Source: Thermoleophilia bacterium SCSIO 60948
GTDB taxonomy: Bacteria > Actinomycetota > Thermoleophilia > Solirubrobacterales > 70-9
Reading direction: 5' to 3'
Assembly (NCBI GenBank): GCA_021496505.1
Contig: CP053031.1
Span: forward strand, 558,001-622,000
DNA length: 64,000 nt
Shown here: positions 239 to 62,361 of the stretch, piece by piece
Position numbering within the stretch: position 1 is the first letter of the stretch
Layout: the number at the start of each line of letters is the position of its first letter
Notes under the pieces: generated by a model
What the model was told of the DNA's origin: nothing
Databases searched by the model: none
Seen by the model: only the letters and a program-made list of their open reading frames with translations
Made by a program: the position numbers and the translations under genes

Positions 239-709
239 TCAACCGAGGTCGGTGTCCGCCAGGGTGCCGTAGGCCTGCATCCGCACGTAGAGCTTGTAGA
301 GCCGCAGCGACTTCGTGTAGCCCGAGGTGCAGGTCTGTTCGAGGCGCCGGAAGGCGAGGACGTCGTCGAGCGGAGAGACGGGATCCGCCGAGCCCTGGGG
401 GGTCAGCTGTTCGCGGAGGGCGACCACCGTCGCGACCTTCTCGTCGCGACTCCCCGCGTTCCAGTCGTAGCAGTCGGCGTACTGCTGCATGTCGCCCGGG
501 GCGTCGGGGCCGACGGGCCGCGCCCCGTCGGGCGCGTAGAGCTGCCGAACCTCAGGCGCCGGCGCGGCCGTGTCGGAGGACCCGGCCGCCGTGGCCTCCG
601 GCTCACCCTGCTCGCCACCGCAGCCGGCGACCAGGACGGCGGCGGACAGCACCGCGGCGACGAGGCCGCCGCGGTGTTCCCTATGCATCGCGGTGAGCGA
701 CCGGCCCAT
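239..709 (-). CDS. Small secreted lipoprotein of unknown function
   Basis: The 156-residue product has an N-terminal hydrophobic segment ending in VLVAGCGG, a typical lipobox, so it is probably diacylglyceryl-modified and anchored on the outer face of the membrane. A Thr/Ser/Ala/Pro-rich linker follows, then a mostly helical domain with three Cys residues (in the YADCYDW and EQTCTSGY segments). I recognise no family. Its ATG (709-707) overlaps the TGA of the upstream beta-helix gene by one base, so the two are probably translationally coupled. A second ATG at 688 would give a shorter signal peptide and is a reasonable alternative start. Confidence 0.6.
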   Translation of the reverse strand: MGRSLTAMHREHRGGLVAAVLSAAVLVAGCGGEQGEPEATAAGSSDTAAPAPEVRQLYAPDGARPVGPDAPGDMQQYADCYDWNAGSRDEKVATVVALREQLTPQGSADPVSPLDDVLAFRRLEQTCTSGYTKSLRLYKLYVRMQAYGTLADTDLG

Positions 710-51493: not shown

Positions 51494-54400
51494 ATGACTG
51501 CCGGTCGCTTCAGCGAGCGTTTTCCGCTGCTCAAACAGCTCAAGGGGGATCCGACCGGCCGCGGGCCCGCCGCCCGTTCGGTCCGGACTTCGAGGACGCA
51601 GCCGCGCACGAAGTCCGCGGACCGCGTCGCCAAGTCGGTCTGCCCCTATTGCGCAGTCGGCTGCGGCCAGCGGATCTTCGTCCGCGACGAGAAGATCATC
51701 CAGATCGAGGGCGACCCCGACTCGCCGATCTCGCGCGGCCGCCTCTGCCCGAAGGGCTCGGCCTCGAACTCCCTCGTCAACGGGCCGAACCGCGAGACGA
51801 AGGTCAAGTACCGCCGCCCGCACGGCACCGAGTGGGAGGAGCTCTCGCTCGATCGGGCGATGGAGATGATCGCCGACCGCGTCGTCGCCACCCGCGCCGC
51901 GAGCTGGCAGGAGTCAGACGATCAGGGCCGCCGCCTCAATCGCACCGAGGGCTTCGCCCACCTCGGGGGGGCGACGCTCGACAACGAGGAGAACTACCTG
52001 ATCAAGAAGCTGTTCACGGCGCTCGGCGCCGTGCAGATCGAGAACCAGGCGCGCATATGACACAGCTCCACCGTCCCCAGTCTGGGGACGTCGTTCGGTA
52101 GGGGTGGCGCCACCACCTTTCAGCAGGACCTGCAGAATTCCGACTGCATCCTGATCCAGGGCTCGAACATGGCCGAGTGCCACCCGGTCGGCTTCCAGTG
52201 GGTGATGGAGGCCAAAGAGCGCGGCGCGAAGATCATCCACGTCGACCCGCGCTTCACCCGCACGAGCGCGGTCTCCGACCTCCACGTGCCGATCCGGGCG
52301 GGCACCGACATCGCGTTCCTCGGCGGGATCGTCAACTACGTGCTCGAGGGCGGCCACGAGTTCACCGAGTACGTCAGGGCCTACACGAACGCCGACGTGA
52401 TCATCGACGAGGGCTTCGCCGACACCGAGGACCTCGATGGCCTGTTCTCCGGCTGGGATCCCGAGACCGGGGAGTACGACCAGACGAGCTGGCGCTACGA
52501 GGGCGAGTCGCCGGCGGCCGCCGCCGGGCAGCGCCAGCGCGAGGGTGGCGCCGGGCACTCGGCCGGCGGCCCGCTCGAGACCGGCAAGGGGGTCAGCCGC
52601 GATCCGTCGCTCGAGGACCCCCGCTGCGTGTGGCAGATCCTCAAGCGCCACTTCTCGCGCTACACGCCGGAGATGGTCGAGCGCGTCACCGGCGTTCCCG
52701 CCGCGAGCATGATCGAGGTCGCCGAGGCGCTCGTCGCCAACTCCGGCCGCGAGCGGACGAGCGCGTTCTGCTACGCCGTCGGCTGGACGCAGCACTCCGT
52801 CGGGGTCCAGTACATCCGAACCGCCTCGATCCTGCAGTTGCTGCTCGGCAACATCGGTCGCCCGGGCGGTGGGATCCTGGCGCTGCGCGGCCACGCGTCG
52901 ATCCAGGGCTCGACCGACGTCCCGACCCTGTTCGACATCCTGCCCGGTTACATCCCGATGCCGGGAGTCGAATCCCGGCATGGCCTCGACGAGTTCGTCG
53001 AGGCGAACTCCGCCGACACCGGTTTCTGGGGCGAGATGAAGAGCTACCTCGTCTCGCTGCAGAAGGCGTGGTGGGGGGACGCCGCGACGGCCGAGAACGA
53101 CTGGGCCTTCGACTACCTGCCGCGGATCTCCGGCGACCACTCGCACTACCAGTCGCTCGTCAGGATGCGCGAGGGGACGACGAAGGGCTACTTCGTCGTC
53201 GGCCAGAACCCCGCCGTCGGCTCGGCGAACGCGCGGCTGAACCGGCTCGCGATGGCCGAGCTCGACTGGATGGTCGTCCGTGAGCTCGTCGACACGGAGA
53301 CGTCGAGCTTCTGGCGCGACTCGCCCGAGATCGAGTCGGGCGAGTTGACCCCCGAGACGATCGGCACCGAGGTCTTCCTGATGCCCGCCGCCTCGCACGC
53401 CGAGAAGGAGGGCACGTTCACCAACACGCAGCGCCTGCTGCAATGGCGCGAGAAGGCGGTCGACCCGCCGGGCGACGCGCGCTCGGACCTCTGGTTCTTC
53501 TTCCACCTGGGCCGGCTCGTCCGCGAGCGGCTCGCTCGGGCGGGACTCGATCGCGACCGTCCGGCGCTCGATCTGACCTGGGACTATCCGACGCACGGTG
53601 AGCACGCCGAGCCGTCGGCCGAGGCGGTGCTGGCCGAGATGAACGGCTACGACGCAGGCGGCGAGCACCTCGCGAGCTACACCGGGCTCGCCGATGACGG
53701 CTCGACCTCGTGCGGGGTCTGGATCTACTGCGGCGTATACGCCGACGGGGTCAACCAGGCGAACCGTCGCAAGCCCGGCTCCGAGCAGAGCTGGGTCGCG
53801 CCCGAATGGGGCTGGGCGTGGCCGTCGAACCGCCGCATCCTCTACAACCGCGCCTCCGCCGACCCCGAGGGCAGGCCGTGGTCGGAGCGCAAGGCGCTCG
53901 TCTGGTGGGACGCGGAGGAAGGTCGCTGGGCGGGTCCTGACATCGCCGACTTCGAGCCCACCAAGCCGCCCGACTACGTGGCGCCGGAAGGCGCGAAGGG
54001 CCTCGCCGCGATCGCCGGCACCGAGCCCTTCATCCTCCAGGCCGACGGGCGCGGCTGGCTGTTCGTGCCGGCGGGGCTCGCCGACGGTCCGCTGCCGACG
54101 CACTACGAGCCACACGAGTCGCCGTTCGAGAACCCGCTCTATGCCCAGCAGGCGAACCCGGCGCGCGAGGTCATCGGCCTGCCCGAGAATCCCTACGCGC
54201 GCACGGGCGAGGAGACCGGCGCCGACGCCTATCCGTTCGTGATGTCGACCTATCGCCTGACCGAGCACCACACCGCGGGCGGCATGAGCCGGTTCCTCGG
54301 GCGGCTCGCCGAGCTCCAGCCGGAGATGTTCTGCGAGGTCTCTCCCGAGCTCGCCGAGCTCCGCGGCCTCGAGTCCGGCGGCTGGGCGACGATCGTCACG

Positions 54401-54724
54401 CCGCGCTCGGCCATCGAGGCGCGCGTCATCGTCACGGAGCGAATACGGACGCTCACCGTCGAGGGCCGGGAGACCCATCAGGTCGGTTTGCCCTATCACT
54501 GGGGTAACCGCGGCGAGGTGACCGGCGACGGCGCCAACGAGCTGCTCTCTGTCGTCATGGACCCGAACACCCACATCGGCGAGTACAAGGCGGCGACCTG
54601 CGACCTGATCGCCGGCCGGCGCCCGCGCGGCCCGGCGCTGCGCGAGTTCGTCGACGCGCACGCGCGCAAGGGCCACGTCGCGCGGCCCGGCTTCGAGGGC
54701 GAGCACCCGGCGGCCCAGAGCTGA
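51494..54724 (+). CDS. Selenocysteine-containing formate dehydrogenase alpha subunit (UGA at 52058-52060 read as Sec189)
   Basis: One continuous frame of 1076 residues when the in-frame TGA at 52058-52060 is read as Sec. Before it the sequence ends GAVQIENQARI; after it comes HSSTVPSLGTSFGRGGATT, matching the NQAR-U-H active-site segment of formate dehydrogenases, where Sec coordinates molybdenum or tungsten. A 4Fe-4S site is at Cys50, Cys53, Cys57 and Cys85. Molybdopterin-binding segments (QGSNMAECHPVGFQW, GNIGRPGGGI) are present. A normal stop at 54722 overlaps the FeS subunit start. No twin-arginine signal is seen, so the catalytic side may face the cytoplasm. selD, selA and selB lie downstream. 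Confidence 0.93.
52072..52090 (+). promoter_or_regulatory. SECIS hairpin that recodes the UGA
   Basis: CGTCCCC (52072-52078), loop AGTCT, GGGGACG (52084-52090): a perfect 7-bp stem with a five-base loop. The apical G-U (52080-52081) lies 19 bases after the UGA. Bacterial SECIS hairpins sit at this distance and show a GU in the loop, as in the E. coli fdhF element (loop AGGUCU). SelB is expected to bind it. Confidence 0.82.
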
Positions 54725-55644
54725 TGCCCGGAAAGCTGCTCGACACCCCCGTGTGGCCTAACGCCTACGAGTCCTCGGGTGAGGAGCCCGGGCCTCGGAT
54801 GGGGTTCTTCACGGACACTTCGCTGTGCATCGGCTGTAAGGCATGCGAGGTCGCGTGCAAGGAGTGGAACGACGTGCCGGTCGACGACGTCGGCTTCCGC
54901 GCGACCTCCTACGACCACACGGGTGACCTCGGCGCGTCGACCTGGCGCCACGTCGCGTTCATCGAGCAGACCGTCCCGGTCGGCCAGGCGGCCGACACCG
55001 CCCCCGACTCGCTGGTCGCCGAGGCGATGCGACAGCAGGCCGAGGTTGCGGGCGTCGAGCCACACGCCGACGCCGAGGGCCTGCGCTGGTTGATGAGCTC
55101 GGACGTCTGCAAGCACTGCACGGAGGCGGGATGCCTCGACGTCTGCCCGACCGGCGCGATCTTCCGCACCGAGTTCGGGACCGTCGTCGTCCAGGACGAC
55201 GTCTGCAACGGCTGCGGCTATTGCGTCGTCGCCTGCCCGTTCGGCGTCATCGACCGGCGTGAGGGCGAGGGCGGAGCCTTCAAGTGCACCCTCTGCTACG
55301 ACCGCCTCCAGGACGACATGCAGCCCGCCTGCGCCCAGGCCTGCCCGACGGACTCGATCCAGTTCGGAGAGCTCGACGAGCTGCGCGAGCGCGCAGCCGG
55401 CCGCGTCGAGGCGCTGCACGAGCGCGGCGAGCGGACGGCACAGCTCTACGGCGAGGACCCGGGTGACGGGGTCGGGGGCTTCGGAGCCTTCTTCCTGCTG
55501 CTCGACGATCCCGAGGTCTACGGCCTGCCGCCCGACCCGGTCGATCCGACGCGACACGTGAAGGCCAACTGGCTGGCCGCCGGTGCCGCCGCCGTCGGTC
55601 TCAGCGCGGGCGTCGCGATCTCGATCCTCGCCGGCCGCGAGTGA
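54724..55644 (+). CDS. Formate dehydrogenase FeS subunit (four 4Fe-4S clusters, C-terminal anchor)
   Basis: The 306-residue protein has four ferredoxin-type clusters: Cys35/38/41/45 (CIGCKACEVAC), Cys129/132/137/141, Cys161/164/167/171 (CNGCGYCVVAC) and Cys188/191/203/207. A hydrophobic C-terminal segment (about 283-303) probably anchors it, as in FdnH. It carries electrons from the Sec-FdhA active site to the NrfD-type membrane subunit. ATG 54724 overlaps the FdhA stop by one base and its own stop overlaps the next GTG. Confidence 0.9.
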   Translation: MPGKLLDTPVWPNAYESSGEEPGPRMGFFTDTSLCIGCKACEVACKEWNDVPVDDVGFRATSYDHTGDLGASTWRHVAFIEQTVPVGQAADTAPDSLVAEAMRQQAEVAGVEPHADAEGLRWLMSSDVCKHCTEAGCLDVCPTGAIFRTEFGTVVVQDDVCNGCGYCVVACPFGVIDRREGEGGAFKCTLCYDRLQDDMQPACAQACPTDSIQFGELDELRERAAGRVEALHERGERTAQLYGEDPGDGVGGFGAFFLLLDDPEVYGLPPDPVDPTRHVKANWLAAGAAAVGLSAGVAISILAGRE

Positions 55645-56780
55645 CGGACGCCCCTGAGAGTCCCGACGATGGGAAGCCCGGCCGGGAGGGACGCAGCGCC
55701 GGCCGCGGTGATTCGGGGCCGGCGGCGGACGAGCCGACCGAGTTCACGCGCGGCGCCGGGCGAACCGGCGACGTTCGCGACGTGATCACGGGCAAGGAGA
55801 CCTACCTCCACGGGCGAGCGGGCGCGCGCACCACGCAGGGCACGCGCAGCACCGGGAGCGGGAAGCGCCGAAGGCGCGGCGGCGGCGAGCGGCGGATGGT
55901 CCCCGACGCCGAGCCGCGCTCCTACTACGACCAGCCGGTGATCAAGCCGCCGGTCTGGACCTGGGAGGTCCCGACCTACCTGTTCTTCGGCGGCATGGGC
56001 GGCGCCGCATCGGCGCTCGCGGCGGCGGCCGGGCTCACCGGCCGCGACGAGCTGGCGCGCCGCGCCTGGATGGTCTCGCTGACCGGGATCACCATCTCGC
56101 CGCTGCTCTTGGTCATGGACCTCGGGCGACCGCTGCGGTTCCTCAACATGCTGCGCGTCTTCAAGCTGACCTCGCCGATGAGCGTCGGCTCGTGGATCCT
56201 GATCGCCAACGGCGCCGCGGCGACCCCGGCGGCCGTCGCCGACATCACCGGCCTACCGATCCCGGGTGCCCGCGCCGCCAAGCTCGCCGCCGGCGTTCTC
56301 GGCATCCCGCTCGCGACGTACACGGCGGTGTTGCTCACGAACACCGCGGTCCCGGTCTGGTCGGAGGCGCGCTGGACGCTCCCGTTCGTCTTCGCGGCCG
56401 GAGCGGCCGCGTCGAGCGGCGGCGCGGTCGTCGCGATCTGCCCGCCCGAGCACGCCGCTCCCGCGCGGCGGCTCGCGATCGGCGGCGCGGTCGTCGAGAG
56501 CGTCGTCGTCGAGCTGATGCAGCAGCGACTCGGCGAGCTCGCCGAGCCCTACCACGAGGGGCCCACGCAGAAGTGGAGCATCGCGGCGAAGACGCTGACG
56601 ATGCTGGGCGGGCTCGGGGTCGCAGCCTTCGGCCGCCGCTCCAAGCGCGCGACGATGACCTCGGCGGCGATGCTGGCCGGCGGCGCGTTCTGCGAGCGTT
56701 GGGCGGTCTACAAGGCCGGCTTCGACTCGGCCAGGGACCCGCGCTACACGGTCGGCCCCCAGCGCGCCCGGATCTCCTAG
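55641..56780 (+). CDS. NrfD/PsrC-type membrane subunit of the formate dehydrogenase
   Basis: The 379-residue protein starts with a disordered, charged N-terminus (about 1-90, rich in Gly, Arg and Asp) and then eight or so membrane helices of the NrfD family, starting VWTWEVPTYLFFGGMGGAAS. NrfD proteins bind the quinone pool; they replace the cytochrome b gamma subunit in many actinobacterial formate dehydrogenases. It is expected to pass electrons from FdhB to menaquinone, or the reverse. GTG 55641 overlaps the previous stop. The polar extension is longer than usual. Confidence 0.85.
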   Translation: MTDAPESPDDGKPGREGRSAGRGDSGPAADEPTEFTRGAGRTGDVRDVITGKETYLHGRAGARTTQGTRSTGSGKRRRRGGGERRMVPDAEPRSYYDQPVIKPPVWTWEVPTYLFFGGMGGAASALAAAAGLTGRDELARRAWMVSLTGITISPLLLVMDLGRPLRFLNMLRVFKLTSPMSVGSWILIANGAAATPAAVADITGLPIPGARAAKLAAGVLGIPLATYTAVLLTNTAVPVWSEARWTLPFVFAAGAAASSGGAVVAICPPEHAAPARRLAIGGAVVESVVVELMQQRLGELAEPYHEGPTQKWSIAAKTLTMLGGLGVAAFGRRSKRATMTSAAMLAGGAFCERWAVYKAGFDSARDPRYTVGPQRARIS

Positions 56781-57986: not shown

Positions 57987-58229
57987 GTGTTCCCGGCGAG
58001 CTACACGATCACGGGCGGACCGGGCAGCGCTCCGGACCCCGCGCTCGAGACCCTTCCCGACCCGGGGCCGCCAGCGCCTCCGACGCCCGATCCGTCACCT
58101 CCGCCCGGTCCGGGTCCTGACCCGATGCCGGGCCCCCCGGCGCCGCCCGAGCCCGATCCCGCGCCGCCGGTCGAGCCGCCGATGACACCGCCGGCGCCCG
58201 CGCCGGACCCCTCGCCACCCGCGATCTAG
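57987..58229 (+). CDS. Small proline-rich ORF
   Basis: The 80-residue frame (GTG start) is about half proline, with Asp, Pro and Gly repeats such as PDPGPPAPPTPDPSPPPGPG, and an N-terminal MFPASYTITGG segment. Its stop TAG (58227-58229) overlaps the selD stop codon on the other strand (CTAG). It could be a cell-wall-associated peptide or merely an open frame in GC-rich DNA. Low confidence in function. Confidence 0.35.
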   Translation: MFPASYTITGGPGSAPDPALETLPDPGPPAPPTPDPSPPPGPGPDPMPGPPAPPEPDPAPPVEPPMTPPAPAPDPSPPAI

Positions 58230-59260
58230 CCGACGCTGATCGCGCCCGGCTCTCCGTCGCGGAGCTCGCCGATCCTCGTGCCCGGGATCCTGCTCGCGTG
58301 CTCGGGCGCAACCGCGACCAGTAGGCCGCCCGACGTCATCGCGTCGCTGACCAGCACCCGCCGCCGCGCGTCGATTCCGTCGGCGTAGGTCGTGAAGCCG
58401 GCCGCGTACTTGGCGTTTCGGCGCGAGCCGCCGGCGAGCGCCTCGGGCCGGGCCGCCAGCTCGAGCGCGCCGTCGATCGCCGGCACCGCCTCGGAGTCGA
58501 TCCGGGCCGCCAGCCCGCTCGCCTCGGCGAGCTCGTGGACGTGCCCGAGCAGGCCGAACCCGGTGACGTCGGTCGCCGCGCGGGCGCCCGCCTCCATGGC
58601 GGCGCGGGAGGCATCCGCGTTGAGTGTCGTCATCACCTCGACGGCGGCGGCGAGCGCGCTCTCCGGAGCGATCCCGCGCTTCGTCGCGGTGGTGATCAAC
58701 CCGCCACCGAGCGGCTTGGTCAGGACGAGCGCGTCGCCGCCGCGGCCGCCGGAGTTCCGAAGCAGCCGGTCTGGGTGCGCGGTCGCGGTCACCGCGAGCC
58801 CGTACTTCGGCTCGGGGTCGTCAATCGAGTGCCCGCCGCCGATCGCGATCCCGGCTCGCGCAGCGGTTTCGGCACCGCCGCGCAGGATCGCGAGCATGAC
58901 CTCCTCGCCGAGCGTCTCGAGCGAGAACGCGAGCAGGTTGATCGCGACGACCGGCTCGGCGCCCATCGCGTAGGCGTCCGACAGGGCGTTCGTCGCGGCG
59001 ATCCGCCCGAACTCGAACGGATCGTCGACGATCGGGGTGAAGAAGTCGGCGGTCGAGACGATCGCCAGCTCGCCGGAGACCCGAACCGCCGCGGCGTCCT
59101 CGGCACCCTCGTAGCCGGCGATCAGGCGCGGGTCGTCGAATCGCGGCAGCCGGGCGAGGACGGGGGAGAGCTCGGCCGCGCCGATCTTGCAGGCGCAGCC
59201 GGCGCCGTGGGAGAGGCTGGTGAGCGTCGGCGTGGCGGCTGACGCCGGGTCCGATGACAT
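58226..59260 (-). CDS. selD: Selenophosphate synthase SelD
   Basis: The 344-residue protein has the SelD active site SHGAGCACKI (Cys and Lys of the GxGCxCK motif) near the N-terminus, STADFFTPIVDDPFEFGRIA, SLETLGEEVM, GLLGHVHELAEASGLAA and the C-terminal MTSGGLLVAVAPEHA. It makes selenophosphate from selenide and ATP. The catalytic residue is Cys, not Sec. ATG 59260 lies 24 bases from the divergent selA start; the upstream part of the frame (to 59545) is non-coding. Confidence 0.93.
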   Translation of the reverse strand: MSSDPASAATPTLTSLSHGAGCACKIGAAELSPVLARLPRFDDPRLIAGYEGAEDAAAVRVSGELAIVSTADFFTPIVDDPFEFGRIAATNALSDAYAMGAEPVVAINLLAFSLETLGEEVMLAILRGGAETAARAGIAIGGGHSIDDPEPKYGLAVTATAHPDRLLRNSGGRGGDALVLTKPLGGGLITTATKRGIAPESALAAAVEVMTTLNADASRAAMEAGARAATDVTGFGLLGHVHELAEASGLAARIDSEAVPAIDGALELAARPEALAGGSRRNAKYAAGFTTYADGIDARRRVLVSDAMTSGGLLVAVAPEHASRIPGTRIGELRDGEPGAISVG

Positions 59261-59267
59261 CGGCGGC

Positions 59268-59277
59268 GGGATACCCT
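59268..59277. promoter_or_regulatory. Overlapping divergent -10 boxes between selD and selA
   Basis: The 24 bp between selD and selA hold one GGGATACCCT core. On the plus strand TACCCT (59272-59277) ends seven bases before the selA GTG (59285). On the minus strand TATCCC (59273-59268) ends seven bases before the selD ATG (59260). The symmetry suggests two leaderless transcripts from one promoter. The -35 boxes are weak. Confidence 0.5.
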
Positions 59278-59284
59278 CGCGGTC

Positions 59285-60643
59285 GTGGCCCCAACCGGAG
59301 AGGCGGCGGCGCTCCGGCGCCTGCCGTCGGTCGAATCGCTTCTCGTCCGTCTCGGCGACCTGCCGCGCCCGCTCGCGCTGGCGAGCGCCCGCGAGGAGCT
59401 CGACGCGCGCCGCGTGGAGATCCGATCCGGCGGCCTCGCCGCCCCGGGCGACGACGAGATTCTCGCCGCGATCCGGCGCCGAGCCGAGCGAGCCGCGGCG
59501 CCGAACCTGCGCCGCGTCATCAACGCGACCGGGGTCATCCTGCACACCAACCTCGGACGCGCGCCACTCGCCGAGCCGGCGCTCGATGAGCTCACCGCCG
59601 CGGCGAGCGGCTACTCGAACCTCGAATTCGACCTCGCCTCCGGCGAGCGCGGCTCACGCCACGACCACATAGAAGCGCTGGTGCGTGAGCTCTCGGGGGC
59701 CGAGGCCGCGATCGCGGTGAACAACAACGCCGCCGCCGTGCTGCTCGCGCTGACCGCGACCGCGGCGGGTCGCGAGGTCGTCATCGGACGTGGTCAGCTG
59801 ATCGAGATCGGGGGGTCGTTTCGAATCCCGGACATCCTGGCGTGCTCTGGCGCGCGCCTGGTCGAGGTCGGGACGACGAACCGGACCCGCGTCGGTGATT
59901 ACGCCGAAGCCATCGGGCCGGACACGGCGGCGATCATGCGCGTCCATCAGTCGAACTTCCGCAGCGTCGGCTTCGTCGCCGAGCCCGCGCTCGACGAGCT
60001 CGCCGCCCTCGCCCGCGAACGAGGGGTCGCGCTGATCGACGACCTCGGCTCGGGCGCGATCGGCGCGGTCGAGGCCGGTGGCGAGCGAGAGCCGACGCTC
60101 GGCGCATCGATCGTCGCCGGCGCCGACCTCGTCTGCGCATCGGCCGACAAGCTGCTGGGCGGCCCGCAGGCCGGACTGATCGCCGGAAGCGCGGACGCCG
60201 TCGCGCGTTGCAGGCAGCATCCGATGGCGCGAGCGATGCGGCTCGACAAGCTCCAGATTGCGGCGCTCGAGGCGACGCTGCGCCTGCACCGCGACGGCCG
60301 CGAGGCCGAGATCCCGGCGCTTGCGATGCTGCGCGCACCGCAGGACGGACTGCGCTCCCGCGCCGAGCTGCTCGCCTCGGCGGCCGGTCCGCGGGCCAGG
60401 GTGGAGGAGTCCGTCGCGCGGCCCGGCGGCGGGACGATGCCGCTCGCCGAGTTGCCGGGGCAGGTCTGCGTGGTCGCGCCGGGTGAGACCGGCGTGGAGG
60501 CGCTTGCTCGGAACCTGCGCGAGGGCCCGACGCCGGTGATCGCGCGGATCGAGGCCGGTGAGCTCGTCCTCGACCCGCGCACGATGAGCGACTCGGACGT
60601 CGCCGAGGCCGGTCGCGTCCTCGCGGCGCTCGCCGACGCGTGA
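59285..60643 (+). CDS. selA: L-seryl-tRNA(Sec) selenium transferase SelA
   Basis: The 452-residue PLP enzyme has the N-terminal tRNA-binding part, then NATGVILHTNLGRAPLAEPA, a SGYSNLEFDLASGERGSRHD segment, VNNNAAAVLLALTATAAGRE, and the PLP lysine Lys289 in CASADKLLGGPQAGLIAGS. It converts Ser-tRNA(Sec) to selenocysteinyl-tRNA(Sec) using selenophosphate. GTG start 25 bases from selD, no leader expected. The stop overlaps the selB GTG (GTGA), so the two are co-translated. Confidence 0.93.
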   Translation: MAPTGEAAALRRLPSVESLLVRLGDLPRPLALASAREELDARRVEIRSGGLAAPGDDEILAAIRRRAERAAAPNLRRVINATGVILHTNLGRAPLAEPALDELTAAASGYSNLEFDLASGERGSRHDHIEALVRELSGAEAAIAVNNNAAAVLLALTATAAGREVVIGRGQLIEIGGSFRIPDILACSGARLVEVGTTNRTRVGDYAEAIGPDTAAIMRVHQSNFRSVGFVAEPALDELAALARERGVALIDDLGSGAIGAVEAGGEREPTLGASIVAGADLVCASADKLLGGPQAGLIAGSADAVARCRQHPMARAMRLDKLQIAALEATLRLHRDGREAEIPALAMLRAPQDGLRSRAELLASAAGPRARVEESVARPGGGTMPLAELPGQVCVVAPGETGVEALARNLREGPTPVIARIEAGELVLDPRTMSDSDVAEAGRVLAALADA

Positions 60644-62361
60644 GCGCGGAGTCGCCCGCGTCCGGCGAGCGCGAGCTGACGCTCTGCACCGCCGGTCACA
60701 TCGACCACGGCAAGTCGGCGCTCGTCGAGGCGCTGACGGGGAAAGGCACCGACAGGCTCGCCGAGGAGCGCCGCCGCGGGATCTCGATCGAGCTCGGGTT
60801 CGCCGAGCTGGGACTGCGCAGCGGGCGCAGGCTGAGCGTCGTTGATGTTCCGGGCCACGAGGCGCTCGTCCGCACGATGGTCGCCGGCGCCGGCGGGGTC
60901 GACCTGACGCTGCTCGTCGTCGCCGCCGACGACGGCCCGATGCCCCAGACCTACGAGCACCTCGACGTCCTGCGCGCGCTCGAGGTCGAGGTCGGCGTGG
61001 TCGCCCTGACGAAGGTCGATGTCGTCGACCGCGCGCGCCGCGACTCGGTCGCGGCCGCGATCTCCGCGCGCGTCCCGGGGGCCCCCGTCGTCGGCGTCAG
61101 CGCCGTCACGGGCGAGGGGCTCGAGGAGCTCGACGCCGCGCTCGAGACCGCGGCCGCCGAGCTCGCCACACGTCCCGACGGCCAGGCTCCGCCGGCCACC
61201 GCGCTCCACGTCGACCGTGTCTTCACGCTGCCCGGCCCCGGGACCGTGGCGACCGGGACCCTGGGCGGCGGGCCGCTCGCACGCGGCGCCGACCTGCGGG
61301 CGCTGCCACGCGGGCTCGAGCTGCGGATCCGCTCGCTGCAGATCCACGATCGCGACGTCGACCCGGCACCGCCCGGGCGCCGCGTCGCCGTCGCCCTGAC
61401 GGGTGCCCACCGCGAGGAGCTCGAGCGCGGCGACGTCCTCGTTCCGGCCGGCAGCCCGCTGCGGAGCTCCTACCGGCTCGACGTCGAACTCGCTCCCGGC
61501 CTGGACCTCGCGACACTCGGAGGCGAACGCCTCCAGGTCCACCACGGCACGCGTGAGTCACCGGCTCGGCTCGTCGCGATCGGCTCGCGGTTCGCGCAGC
61601 TGAGGCTCGAGTCCGAGCTCGTCGCGCGCCCGCGCGACCGCGTCGTCCTGCGGCGGATCGCTCCGGCCGGCACGCTCGGCGGCGCCACCGTCCTCGATCC
61701 GGCGCCGCCCCGCCACGGGACCACCGCGCTCGACCGCCTCGAGGCGGTCGCGACGGGTGAGCCCGAGCGACTCGTTCGCGAAGAGCTCGCGGCGCACGGC
61801 CGGCTCGCTCTCGACCCCGGCGACTGGTCGTCGGACTCGGTCCCGGGGCTCGCGCGGCCTCGCTTCGCCGACGAGCGCTGGCGCCGCGCGGTCGAAGTCG
61901 TCGCGGCCGAGGAGGGAGTGACCCGGAACGGCGATGCCATCTCGCGCACCAGCGCCACGGCTCCGGCTCCGCCGCCCCCGGCTGAGCTCGGTCAGCTCGA
62001 GCGGATCCTCCTCACCCTGATCGAGCGCGGGGGCGATTCACCGCCGTCGACCGCGCGGATCGCCGCGGCGCTCGGCCGGCCGGAGGCCGAGGTCAACCGA
62101 GCGCTCGATCAGCTCGTCGGCGCGGGAGAGCTCGTCCGCCTGGCGCGGGACCTCCACGTCCGGCCGGACGTTCTTGCCGGACTCGAGCGGACGGCGCTCG
62201 AGGTGGGTCGTGAGAACGGCGGCGAGATCACCATCGCCGCGCTCCGCGACCGGATCGGCAGCTCACGCAAGTACACGCAGGCGCTGCTCGAGCATCTCGA
62301 CTCCGAGCAGGTGACGATCCGCCGCGGCGATCGGCATCTGATCCGCTCCGGCCGTCGCTAG
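60640..62361 (+). CDS. selB: Selenocysteine-specific elongation factor SelB
   Basis: The 573-residue GTPase has G1 (CTAGHIDHGKSALVEALTG), G2 (RRRGISIELGFAEL), G3 (VDVPGHEALVRTMVAG) and G4 (LTKVDVVD), domains II and III, and a C-terminal set of winged helices (about 380-573, ending RDRIGSSRKYTQALLEHLDS) that binds the SECIS hairpin. It delivers Sec-tRNA(Sec) to UGA in the FdhA mRNA. It starts with GTG overlapping the selA stop. Together with selD and the fdh genes it forms a complete Sec module apart from selC. Confidence 0.93.
   Translation: MSAESPASGERELTLCTAGHIDHGKSALVEALTGKGTDRLAEERRRGISIELGFAELGLRSGRRLSVVDVPGHEALVRTMVAGAGGVDLTLLVVAADDGPMPQTYEHLDVLRALEVEVGVVALTKVDVVDRARRDSVAAAISARVPGAPVVGVSAVTGEGLEELDAALETAAAELATRPDGQAPPATALHVDRVFTLPGPGTVATGTLGGGPLARGADLRALPRGLELRIRSLQIHDRDVDPAPPGRRVAVALTGAHREELERGDVLVPAGSPLRSSYRLDVELAPGLDLATLGGERLQVHHGTRESPARLVAIGSRFAQLRLESELVARPRDRVVLRRIAPAGTLGGATVLDPAPPRHGTTALDRLEAVATGEPERLVREELAAHGRLALDPGDWSSDSVPGLARPRFADERWRRAVEVVAAEEGVTRNGDAISRTSATAPAPPPPAELGQLERILLTLIERGGDSPPSTARIAAALGRPEAEVNRALDQLVGAGELVRLARDLHVRPDVLAGLERTALEVGRENGGEITIAALRDRIGSSRKYTQALLEHLDSEQVTIRRGDRHLIRSGRR

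What the first reader, a model, noticed from the sequence alone, without database searches (positions are those of the whole stretch)
51494..54724. Formate dehydrogenase with an in-frame UGA, a 7-bp SECIS hairpin and the complete Sec-insertion machinery within 10 kb
The alpha subunit is split into two frames by TGA at 52058-52060, but the residues on both sides (QARI then HSSTVPSLG) join into the known formate dehydrogenase active site. A perfect hairpin with a GU-containing loop starts 12 bases downstream. selD, selA and selB follow. Standard gene callers would report two fragments here. Actinobacterial Sec-FDHs are known, so the novelty is in the compact gene order, not the mechanism.
Basis: partly seen in the sequence, partly recalled or inferred. 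Interest (0 to 1): 0.8.

Follow-up and report, generated by a model that had tools for sequence, protein, structure and literature searches.

The report
Ordinary selenocysteine formate dehydrogenase gene cluster
This is a normal bacterial formate-oxidising enzyme that uses the rare amino acid selenocysteine, sitting next to most of the genes needed to insert it; the arrangement is already known, though the codon just before the selenocysteine codon shows an unusual conserved preference that may be an unrecognised part of the signal.

Summary
An in-frame TGA (52058-52060) sits at the selenocysteine (Sec) site of a full-length formate dehydrogenase alpha subunit: curated family NF041513 at 1862 bits (cut-off 1400), with the residue aligned to Sec of E. 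coli FdnG. A 7-bp hairpin with a GUC loop follows. Over 40 distinct orthologues the hairpin shows compensatory changes, and it is lost in Cys homologues. The TGA is conserved in about 100 relatives, so it is not a read error. selA and selB lie downstream; selD lies there too, but on the minus strand. selC exists (anticodon UCA, 62.8 bits), but about 25.6 kb beyond selB, so the machinery is not complete within 10 kb. A whole-genome scan with a SECIS model built here finds only this site.

The gene order is not new: fdhABC next to selD/selA/selB recurs across Actinomycetota and is described in print (PMC7176365, PMC5029168). Verdict: new member of a known kind.

One thing noticed may be new. The codon immediately before the Sec codon is almost always the AU-rich synonym (ATA, ATT, GTT, TTA, TTG), though rare in such genes. 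It is C/G-ending in Cys homologues and in proteobacterial fdnG. It holds only partly in an unrelated selenoprotein.

The parts
51494..54724 (+). fdhA: formate dehydrogenase alpha subunit, 1076 aa with Sec189 encoded by in-frame TGA
   Evidence: NF041513 1861.8 bits (cut-off 1400), TIGR01553 972.6 bits; Pfam molybdopterin oxidoreductase and Fe4S4 domains; aligned to FdnG 1kqf
52058..52060 (+). Sec codon (TGA)
   Evidence: aligned to Sec of 1kqf; TGA in 101, TAG in 9 and Cys codon in 9 homologues
52073..52089 (+). bacterial SECIS upper hairpin: 7-bp stem, loop GUC
   Evidence: covariation over 40 orthologues; apex identical to the Rfam SECIS_3 consensus AGUCU though the whole match (22.5 bits) is below the gathering score 63; stem lost in Cys homologues; own CM R1 64.6 bits, only significant hit in the genome
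52055..52057 (+). ATA codon immediately before the Sec codon (rare: 3 of 142 Ile codons in the window genes counted, this one included); AU-rich synonym conserved across actinobacterial Sec-fdhA
54724..55644 (+). fdhB: iron-sulphur beta subunit with a C-terminal hydrophobic segment
   Evidence: TIGR01582 FDH-beta 177.5 bits (below its cut-off 334.7); Fer4 domains; sequence
55641..56780 (+). fdhC: NrfD-like membrane subunit
   Evidence: PF03916 46.9 bits
58226..59260 (-). selD: selenide, water dikinase, Cys form (GAGCACKIG)
   Evidence: TIGR00476 362.3 bits; sequence read directly
59285..60643 (+). selA: L-seryl-tRNA(Sec) selenium transferase
   Evidence: TIGR00474 500.7 bits; PF03841
60640..62361 (+). 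selB: Sec-specific elongation factor with C-terminal SECIS-binding winged helix
   Evidence: TIGR00475 285.1 bits; PF09107 SelB-wing_3 58.4 bits; aligned to E. coli SelB 5lzb

Best explanation
This is a canonical bacterial selenocysteine system serving one enzyme. fdhA encodes a membrane-bound, FDH-N-like formate dehydrogenase alpha subunit with selenocysteine at residue 189. SelD makes selenophosphate. SelA converts Ser-tRNA(Sec) to Sec-tRNA(Sec) on the selC tRNA encoded elsewhere in the genome. SelB-GTP carries it and docks on the SECIS hairpin 12 nt after the UGA, so UGA is read as Sec instead of terminating. FdhB (Fe-S) and FdhC (NrfD-like) pass electrons from formate to the membrane quinone pool; FdhD, encoded elsewhere, matures the cofactor. 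Shown here: family identities, conserved UGA, covarying SECIS, selC with anticodon UCA, fdhD present, co-occurrence. Inferred from established biochemistry: that Sec is actually inserted, the electron path, and the enzyme's activity.
For: Full-length NF041513 match at 1861.8 bits. Sec aligned with FdnG Sec in 1kqf. SECIS: 97.1% of cells paired, 17 double-changed cells vs 3.7 shuffled, 0/500 shuffles reach the covariation score; loop GUC/GUU in 100/101 UGA genes; pair 4 (52076:52086) is unpaired in all 9 Cys homologues. selC at 62.8 bits (gathering score 47), ARAGORN tRNA-SeC with anticodon TCA. SelA, SelB and SelD above curated cut-offs. SelB has the winged-helix SECIS-binding domain. fdhD in the genome. 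selC co-occurs with UGA-fdhA: 43/52, vs 1/6 Cys-only and 0/20 without fdhA (selC counted at 56 bits or more). Selenium-dependent formate oxidation was shown in Actinomycetospora with homologous Sec-FDH clusters (PMC7176365).
Against: No expression, ribosome profiling or mass-spectrometry data for this organism. The hit to Rfam SECIS_3 is far below its gathering score (22.5 vs 63), and the hairpin is not unusually stable for its composition. Nine UGA-fdhA genomes gave no clear selC; all nine are drafts in about 100 or more contigs, so assembly gaps are likely but unproven.
Confidence: 0.97

Rival explanations
1. Pseudogene or sequencing error: the TGA is a disabling mutation or a base-call error in what is a Cys-type fdhA.
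For: The ORF is formally split into 188 aa and 851 aa frames.
Against: The TGA is conserved at the same codon in about 100 relatives, with a covarying SECIS. The rest of the frame is intact over about 1050 aligned positions. selA/B/C/D are all present and intact. The genome is one contig.
Confidence: 0.01
2. UGA is read through by another mechanism (near-cognate suppression or a split two-subunit enzyme), not Sec insertion.
For: An ATG at 52169 could start the second fragment.
Against: The second fragment would lack the active-site residue. SelA, SelB, SelD and a UCA tRNA(Sec) are present. The hairpin is SECIS-like and is kept only in UGA/UAG genes. Cys homologues are continuous.
Confidence: 0.02

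Closest known systems
Actinobacterial Sec-formate dehydrogenase (NCBIfam NF041513); FDH1 cluster of Actinomycetospora chiangmaiensis DSM 45062 (PMC7176365)
   Same: fdhA (Sec, 1078 aa) - fdhB - fdhC listed with selA and selB in one cluster; Sec codon plus SECIS; selenium-dependent formate removal and proteomic detection shown there
   Different: There a permease gene is listed between fdhC and selA, and selD is not listed in the FDH1 cluster; here a PAP2-like gene and divergent selD lie between, and selC is about 26 kb away
E. coli FdnGHI (formate dehydrogenase N, 1kqf)
   Same: Sec active site, FDH-N alpha architecture, Fe-S beta subunit, UGA decoding
   Different: Third subunit here is NrfD-like by Pfam match, whereas FdnI is a cytochrome b (general knowledge); -1 codon GTC instead of ATA
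fdhABC-selD-selA-selB clusters in Actinomycetota (for example L122 same GTDB family; L047; L052; L081; L056)
   Same: Same genes within 10-20 kb; L122 and L047 have the same order and strands as here
   Different: Many others keep selC between selD and selA; here selC lies about 26 kb away

Membership tests
Sec-containing formate dehydrogenase alpha (NF041513 / FDH-N type) | Full-length match above the curated cut-off | tested here: met
   1861.8 bits vs cut-off 1400, residues 8-1057
Sec-containing formate dehydrogenase alpha (NF041513 / FDH-N type) | In-frame UGA aligned with the Mo/W-ligating Sec/Cys, followed by His | tested here: met
   U189-H190 aligned to X-H of 1kqf
Sec-containing formate dehydrogenase alpha (NF041513 / FDH-N type) | Selenium-dependent formate oxidation | not testable with these tools
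   needs assay; shown for relatives in PMC7176365
Bacterial SECIS element | Hairpin immediately downstream of UGA with GU in the apical loop | tested here: met
   stem 52073-52089, loop GUC; covariation; loop GU in 100/101 UGA genes
Bacterial SECIS element (Rfam SECIS_3) | Match above the gathering score | tested here: not met
   22.5 bits vs 63; not filed as a member of that Rfam family
[quoted passage not shown]
   all above TIGRFAM cut-offs
Bacterial Sec-decoding trait | selC with anticodon UCA | tested here: met
   G000:C1:645980-646071, 62.8 bits, anticodon TCA
   selC is about 25.6 kb past selB

The most novel reading that the evidence does not exclude
In actinobacterial Sec formate dehydrogenases the recoding signal extends 5' of the Sec codon. 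The codon at position -1 must be an AU-rich (usually rare) synonym, which helps Sec insertion win over termination, through P-site decoding speed or by keeping the stop codon unpaired. This would be an unrecognised, lineage-specific 5' element of bacterial Sec recoding.
Probability: 0.4. Interest if true: 0.5.

Novelty: new member of a known kind. Interest (0 to 1): 0.25.

Why it matters
It confirms a selenoprotein that a standard gene caller would report as two fragments, and it corrects the claim about gene order. If the -1 codon constraint is real, it would improve bacterial selenoprotein prediction (one recent predictor, PMC12013277, scores the 300 nt downstream of the TGA) and give an easily tested handle on how UGA recoding competes with release factor 2.

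Tried and rejected
1) Rfam scan of the window at gathering scores: nothing; the low-score list gave only a weak SECIS_3 match. 2) ARAGORN calls in the window (402-479 and 59464-59557) are not credible tRNAs: the first has no anticodon assignment, the second lies inside selA, and Rfam reports neither. 3) Genomes with '2 TGA' or 'TGA + TAG/TAA' inside fdhA suggested a second recoded stop. Reading the frames showed that the extra stop lies within the last few codons of the profile match, that is, it is the natural C-terminal stop. 4) Base pairing of the -1 nucleotide with downstream bases: mutual information showed no convincing Watson-Crick partner, only what looks like lineage signal. 5) Search for other SECIS sites in the genome with the home-made model: only fdhA (next 16.9 bits, E 1.9). 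6) SelU, the other SelD client: absent. 7) Viral contigs: no relative. 9) The UGSC selenoprotein family as an independent test of the -1 rule gave a mixed answer. 10) A selC remnant between selD and selA in the close relative L122: nothing found.

Full report
WHAT IS THERE. The frame from ATG 51494 to stop 54724 is interrupted once, by TGA at 52058-52060. Read through, it is a 1076-residue formate dehydrogenase alpha subunit with the read-through residue at position 189. It matches the curated actinobacterial family NF041513 over its whole length (1861.8 bits, cut-off 1400) and TIGR01553, FDH-N alpha (972.6 bits). In the alignment to E. coli FdnG (1kqf) the TGA residue falls on the selenocysteine and is followed by the conserved His. 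fdhB (54724-55644) and an NrfD-like fdhC (55641-56780) follow in tight overlap. selD is on the minus strand (58226-59260, Cys form), divergent from selA (59285-60643) and selB (60640-62361).

SECIS. The stem 52073-52079/52083-52089 with loop GUC starts 12 nt after the TGA. Folding energy alone is unremarkable, so I tested it by comparison. Over 40 distinct orthologous sequences 97.1% of cells pair, three pairs show changes on both sides, 17 cells are double-changed (shuffled mean 3.7), and 0 of 500 shuffles reach the covariation score. Sliding the 3' arm by 1-3 columns drops pairing to 29-63%. In nine Cys homologues pair 4 (52076:52086) is never formed, pair 2 (52078:52084) is formed in a third, and the GU of the loop is mostly gone. 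A covariance model of this SECIS finds only fdhA in the whole genome (64.6 bits; next 16.9), so fdhA is probably the only selenoprotein with this type of signal. Other SECIS types were not excluded.

MACHINERY. selC was not in the window. A genome search finds one clear tRNA(Sec), G000:C1:645980-646071, 62.8 bits against a gathering score of 47; ARAGORN independently calls it SeC with anticodon TCA. SelB carries the C-terminal winged helix that binds SECIS. fdhD is present and SelU is absent, so SelD most likely serves Sec only. Across sampled genomes of the same class, and counting selC at 56 bits or more (my threshold, chosen because hits at about 49-53 bits also appear in genomes without fdhA), selC is found in 43 of 52 genomes with UGA-fdhA, 1 of 6 with only Cys-fdhA and 0 of 20 without fdhA (Fisher p = 7e-12 for UGA versus the rest). 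All nine UGA genomes without selC are drafts in about 100 or more contigs.

NOT AN ERROR, NOT A NEW ARRANGEMENT. In the class search 94 of 399 genomes have the family, most with exactly one in-frame TGA; the phylum search gives the same picture. Two contigs of the class match public records in length and match statistics, one of them labelled Solirubrobacterales, so the window probably comes from Thermoleophilia; the genome itself is unnamed and this is an inference. Neighbourhoods of 120 loci show fdhABC beside selD/selA/selB in many Actinomycetota. L122 (same GTDB family) and L047 have the same order and strands; others are permuted, and many keep selC between selD and selA. Published work describes Sec-FDH clusters with selA/selB and selenium-dependent formate use in Actinomycetospora (PMC7176365), and fdhA close to or in operons with sel genes in bacteria more broadly (PMC5029168; PMC1794560). 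UAG-Sec in Geodermatophilaceae FDHs, seen here in 9 loci, is also published (PMC5330540).

SOMETHING NOTICED. The codon just before the Sec codon is ATA here, one of only 3 ATA among 142 Ile codons in the window genes counted. In 110 actinobacterial UGA/UAG fdhA genes the -1 codon ends in A or T in 108 (ATA 48, ATT 46, GTT 13, TTA 1; ATC 2), while Ile elsewhere in the same genes is ATC in 96-98%. Among 1042 codon columns only this one and the SECIS loop codon (+7) exceed 0.5 A/T at the third position, apart from the stop codon itself. The nine Cys homologues all have C or G there. A second phylum sample gives 58 of 64 AU-rich synonyms (expected 10.0), and a different FDH subfamily (TIGR01591, mostly Leu at -1: TTA/TTG) gives 32 of 36 (expected 12.0). 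On a tree the third base switches between A and T eight times, and changes to C appear eight times. Eight proteobacterial fdnG-like sequences with UGA, including E. coli, all have GTC, whereas Thermomicrobium has ATA. In the unrelated UGSC selenoprotein the preference is partial: GAT 13, GAC 8 before UGA, and GAC 4 of 4 before Cys (my count). Predicted pairing of UGA is lower with the native codon than with the common synonym (mean unpaired 0.59 vs 0.44 in the first set), a modest effect that a GC-rich context alone could give. No pairing partner was found. Targeted literature searches found no description, but the held library is incomplete. I regard a 5' contribution to recoding as plausible, not shown.

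VERDICT. Observation confirmed; interpretation right about Sec, wrong about selC and about novelty of the gene order. New member of a known kind.

Noticed in passing
window 52055-52057; orthologues L009-L040, L041-L120, L147-L160, L207-L325: The codon immediately 5' of the Sec codon is almost always the AU-rich, normally rare synonym (ATA/ATT/GTT/TTA/TTG) in actinobacterial Sec-fdhA, but C/G-ending in Cys homologues and GTC in proteobacterial fdnG.
   Followed up: yes
L327-L356: UGSC-motif selenoprotein with in-frame TGA; before UGA the Asp codon is GAT 13, GAC 8, before Cys GAC 4/4, so the -1 preference is only partial here.
   Followed up: partly
L055, L062, L069, L083, L085, L087, L097, L098, L102: Geodermatophilaceae fdhA use TAG instead of TGA at the Sec site, keeping the SECIS and an ATA codon before it; TAG-Sec is already published (PMC5330540).
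   Followed up: partly
G298 and G316 (L014/L143, L015): Some genomes of the class carry both a Cys-type and a UGA-type fdhA; G318 has a clear selC but only a Cys-type fdhA was found.
   Followed up: no
window 59260-59285: The predicted starts of divergent selD and selA are only 24 bp apart; in many relatives selC lies there, so selC seems to have left the cluster (or never joined it) in this lineage.
   Followed up: partly
fdhA codon +41 after Sec (His of HPVG): This His codon is CAT in nearly half of the GC-rich genes, the next-highest A/T-ending column after -1 and +7; no explanation.
   Followed up: no
GTDB family of G000: Only 3 genomes of this family in the sample (G000, G354, G398) have the fdhA family while at least 20 lack it, so the trait is patchy.
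   Followed up: no
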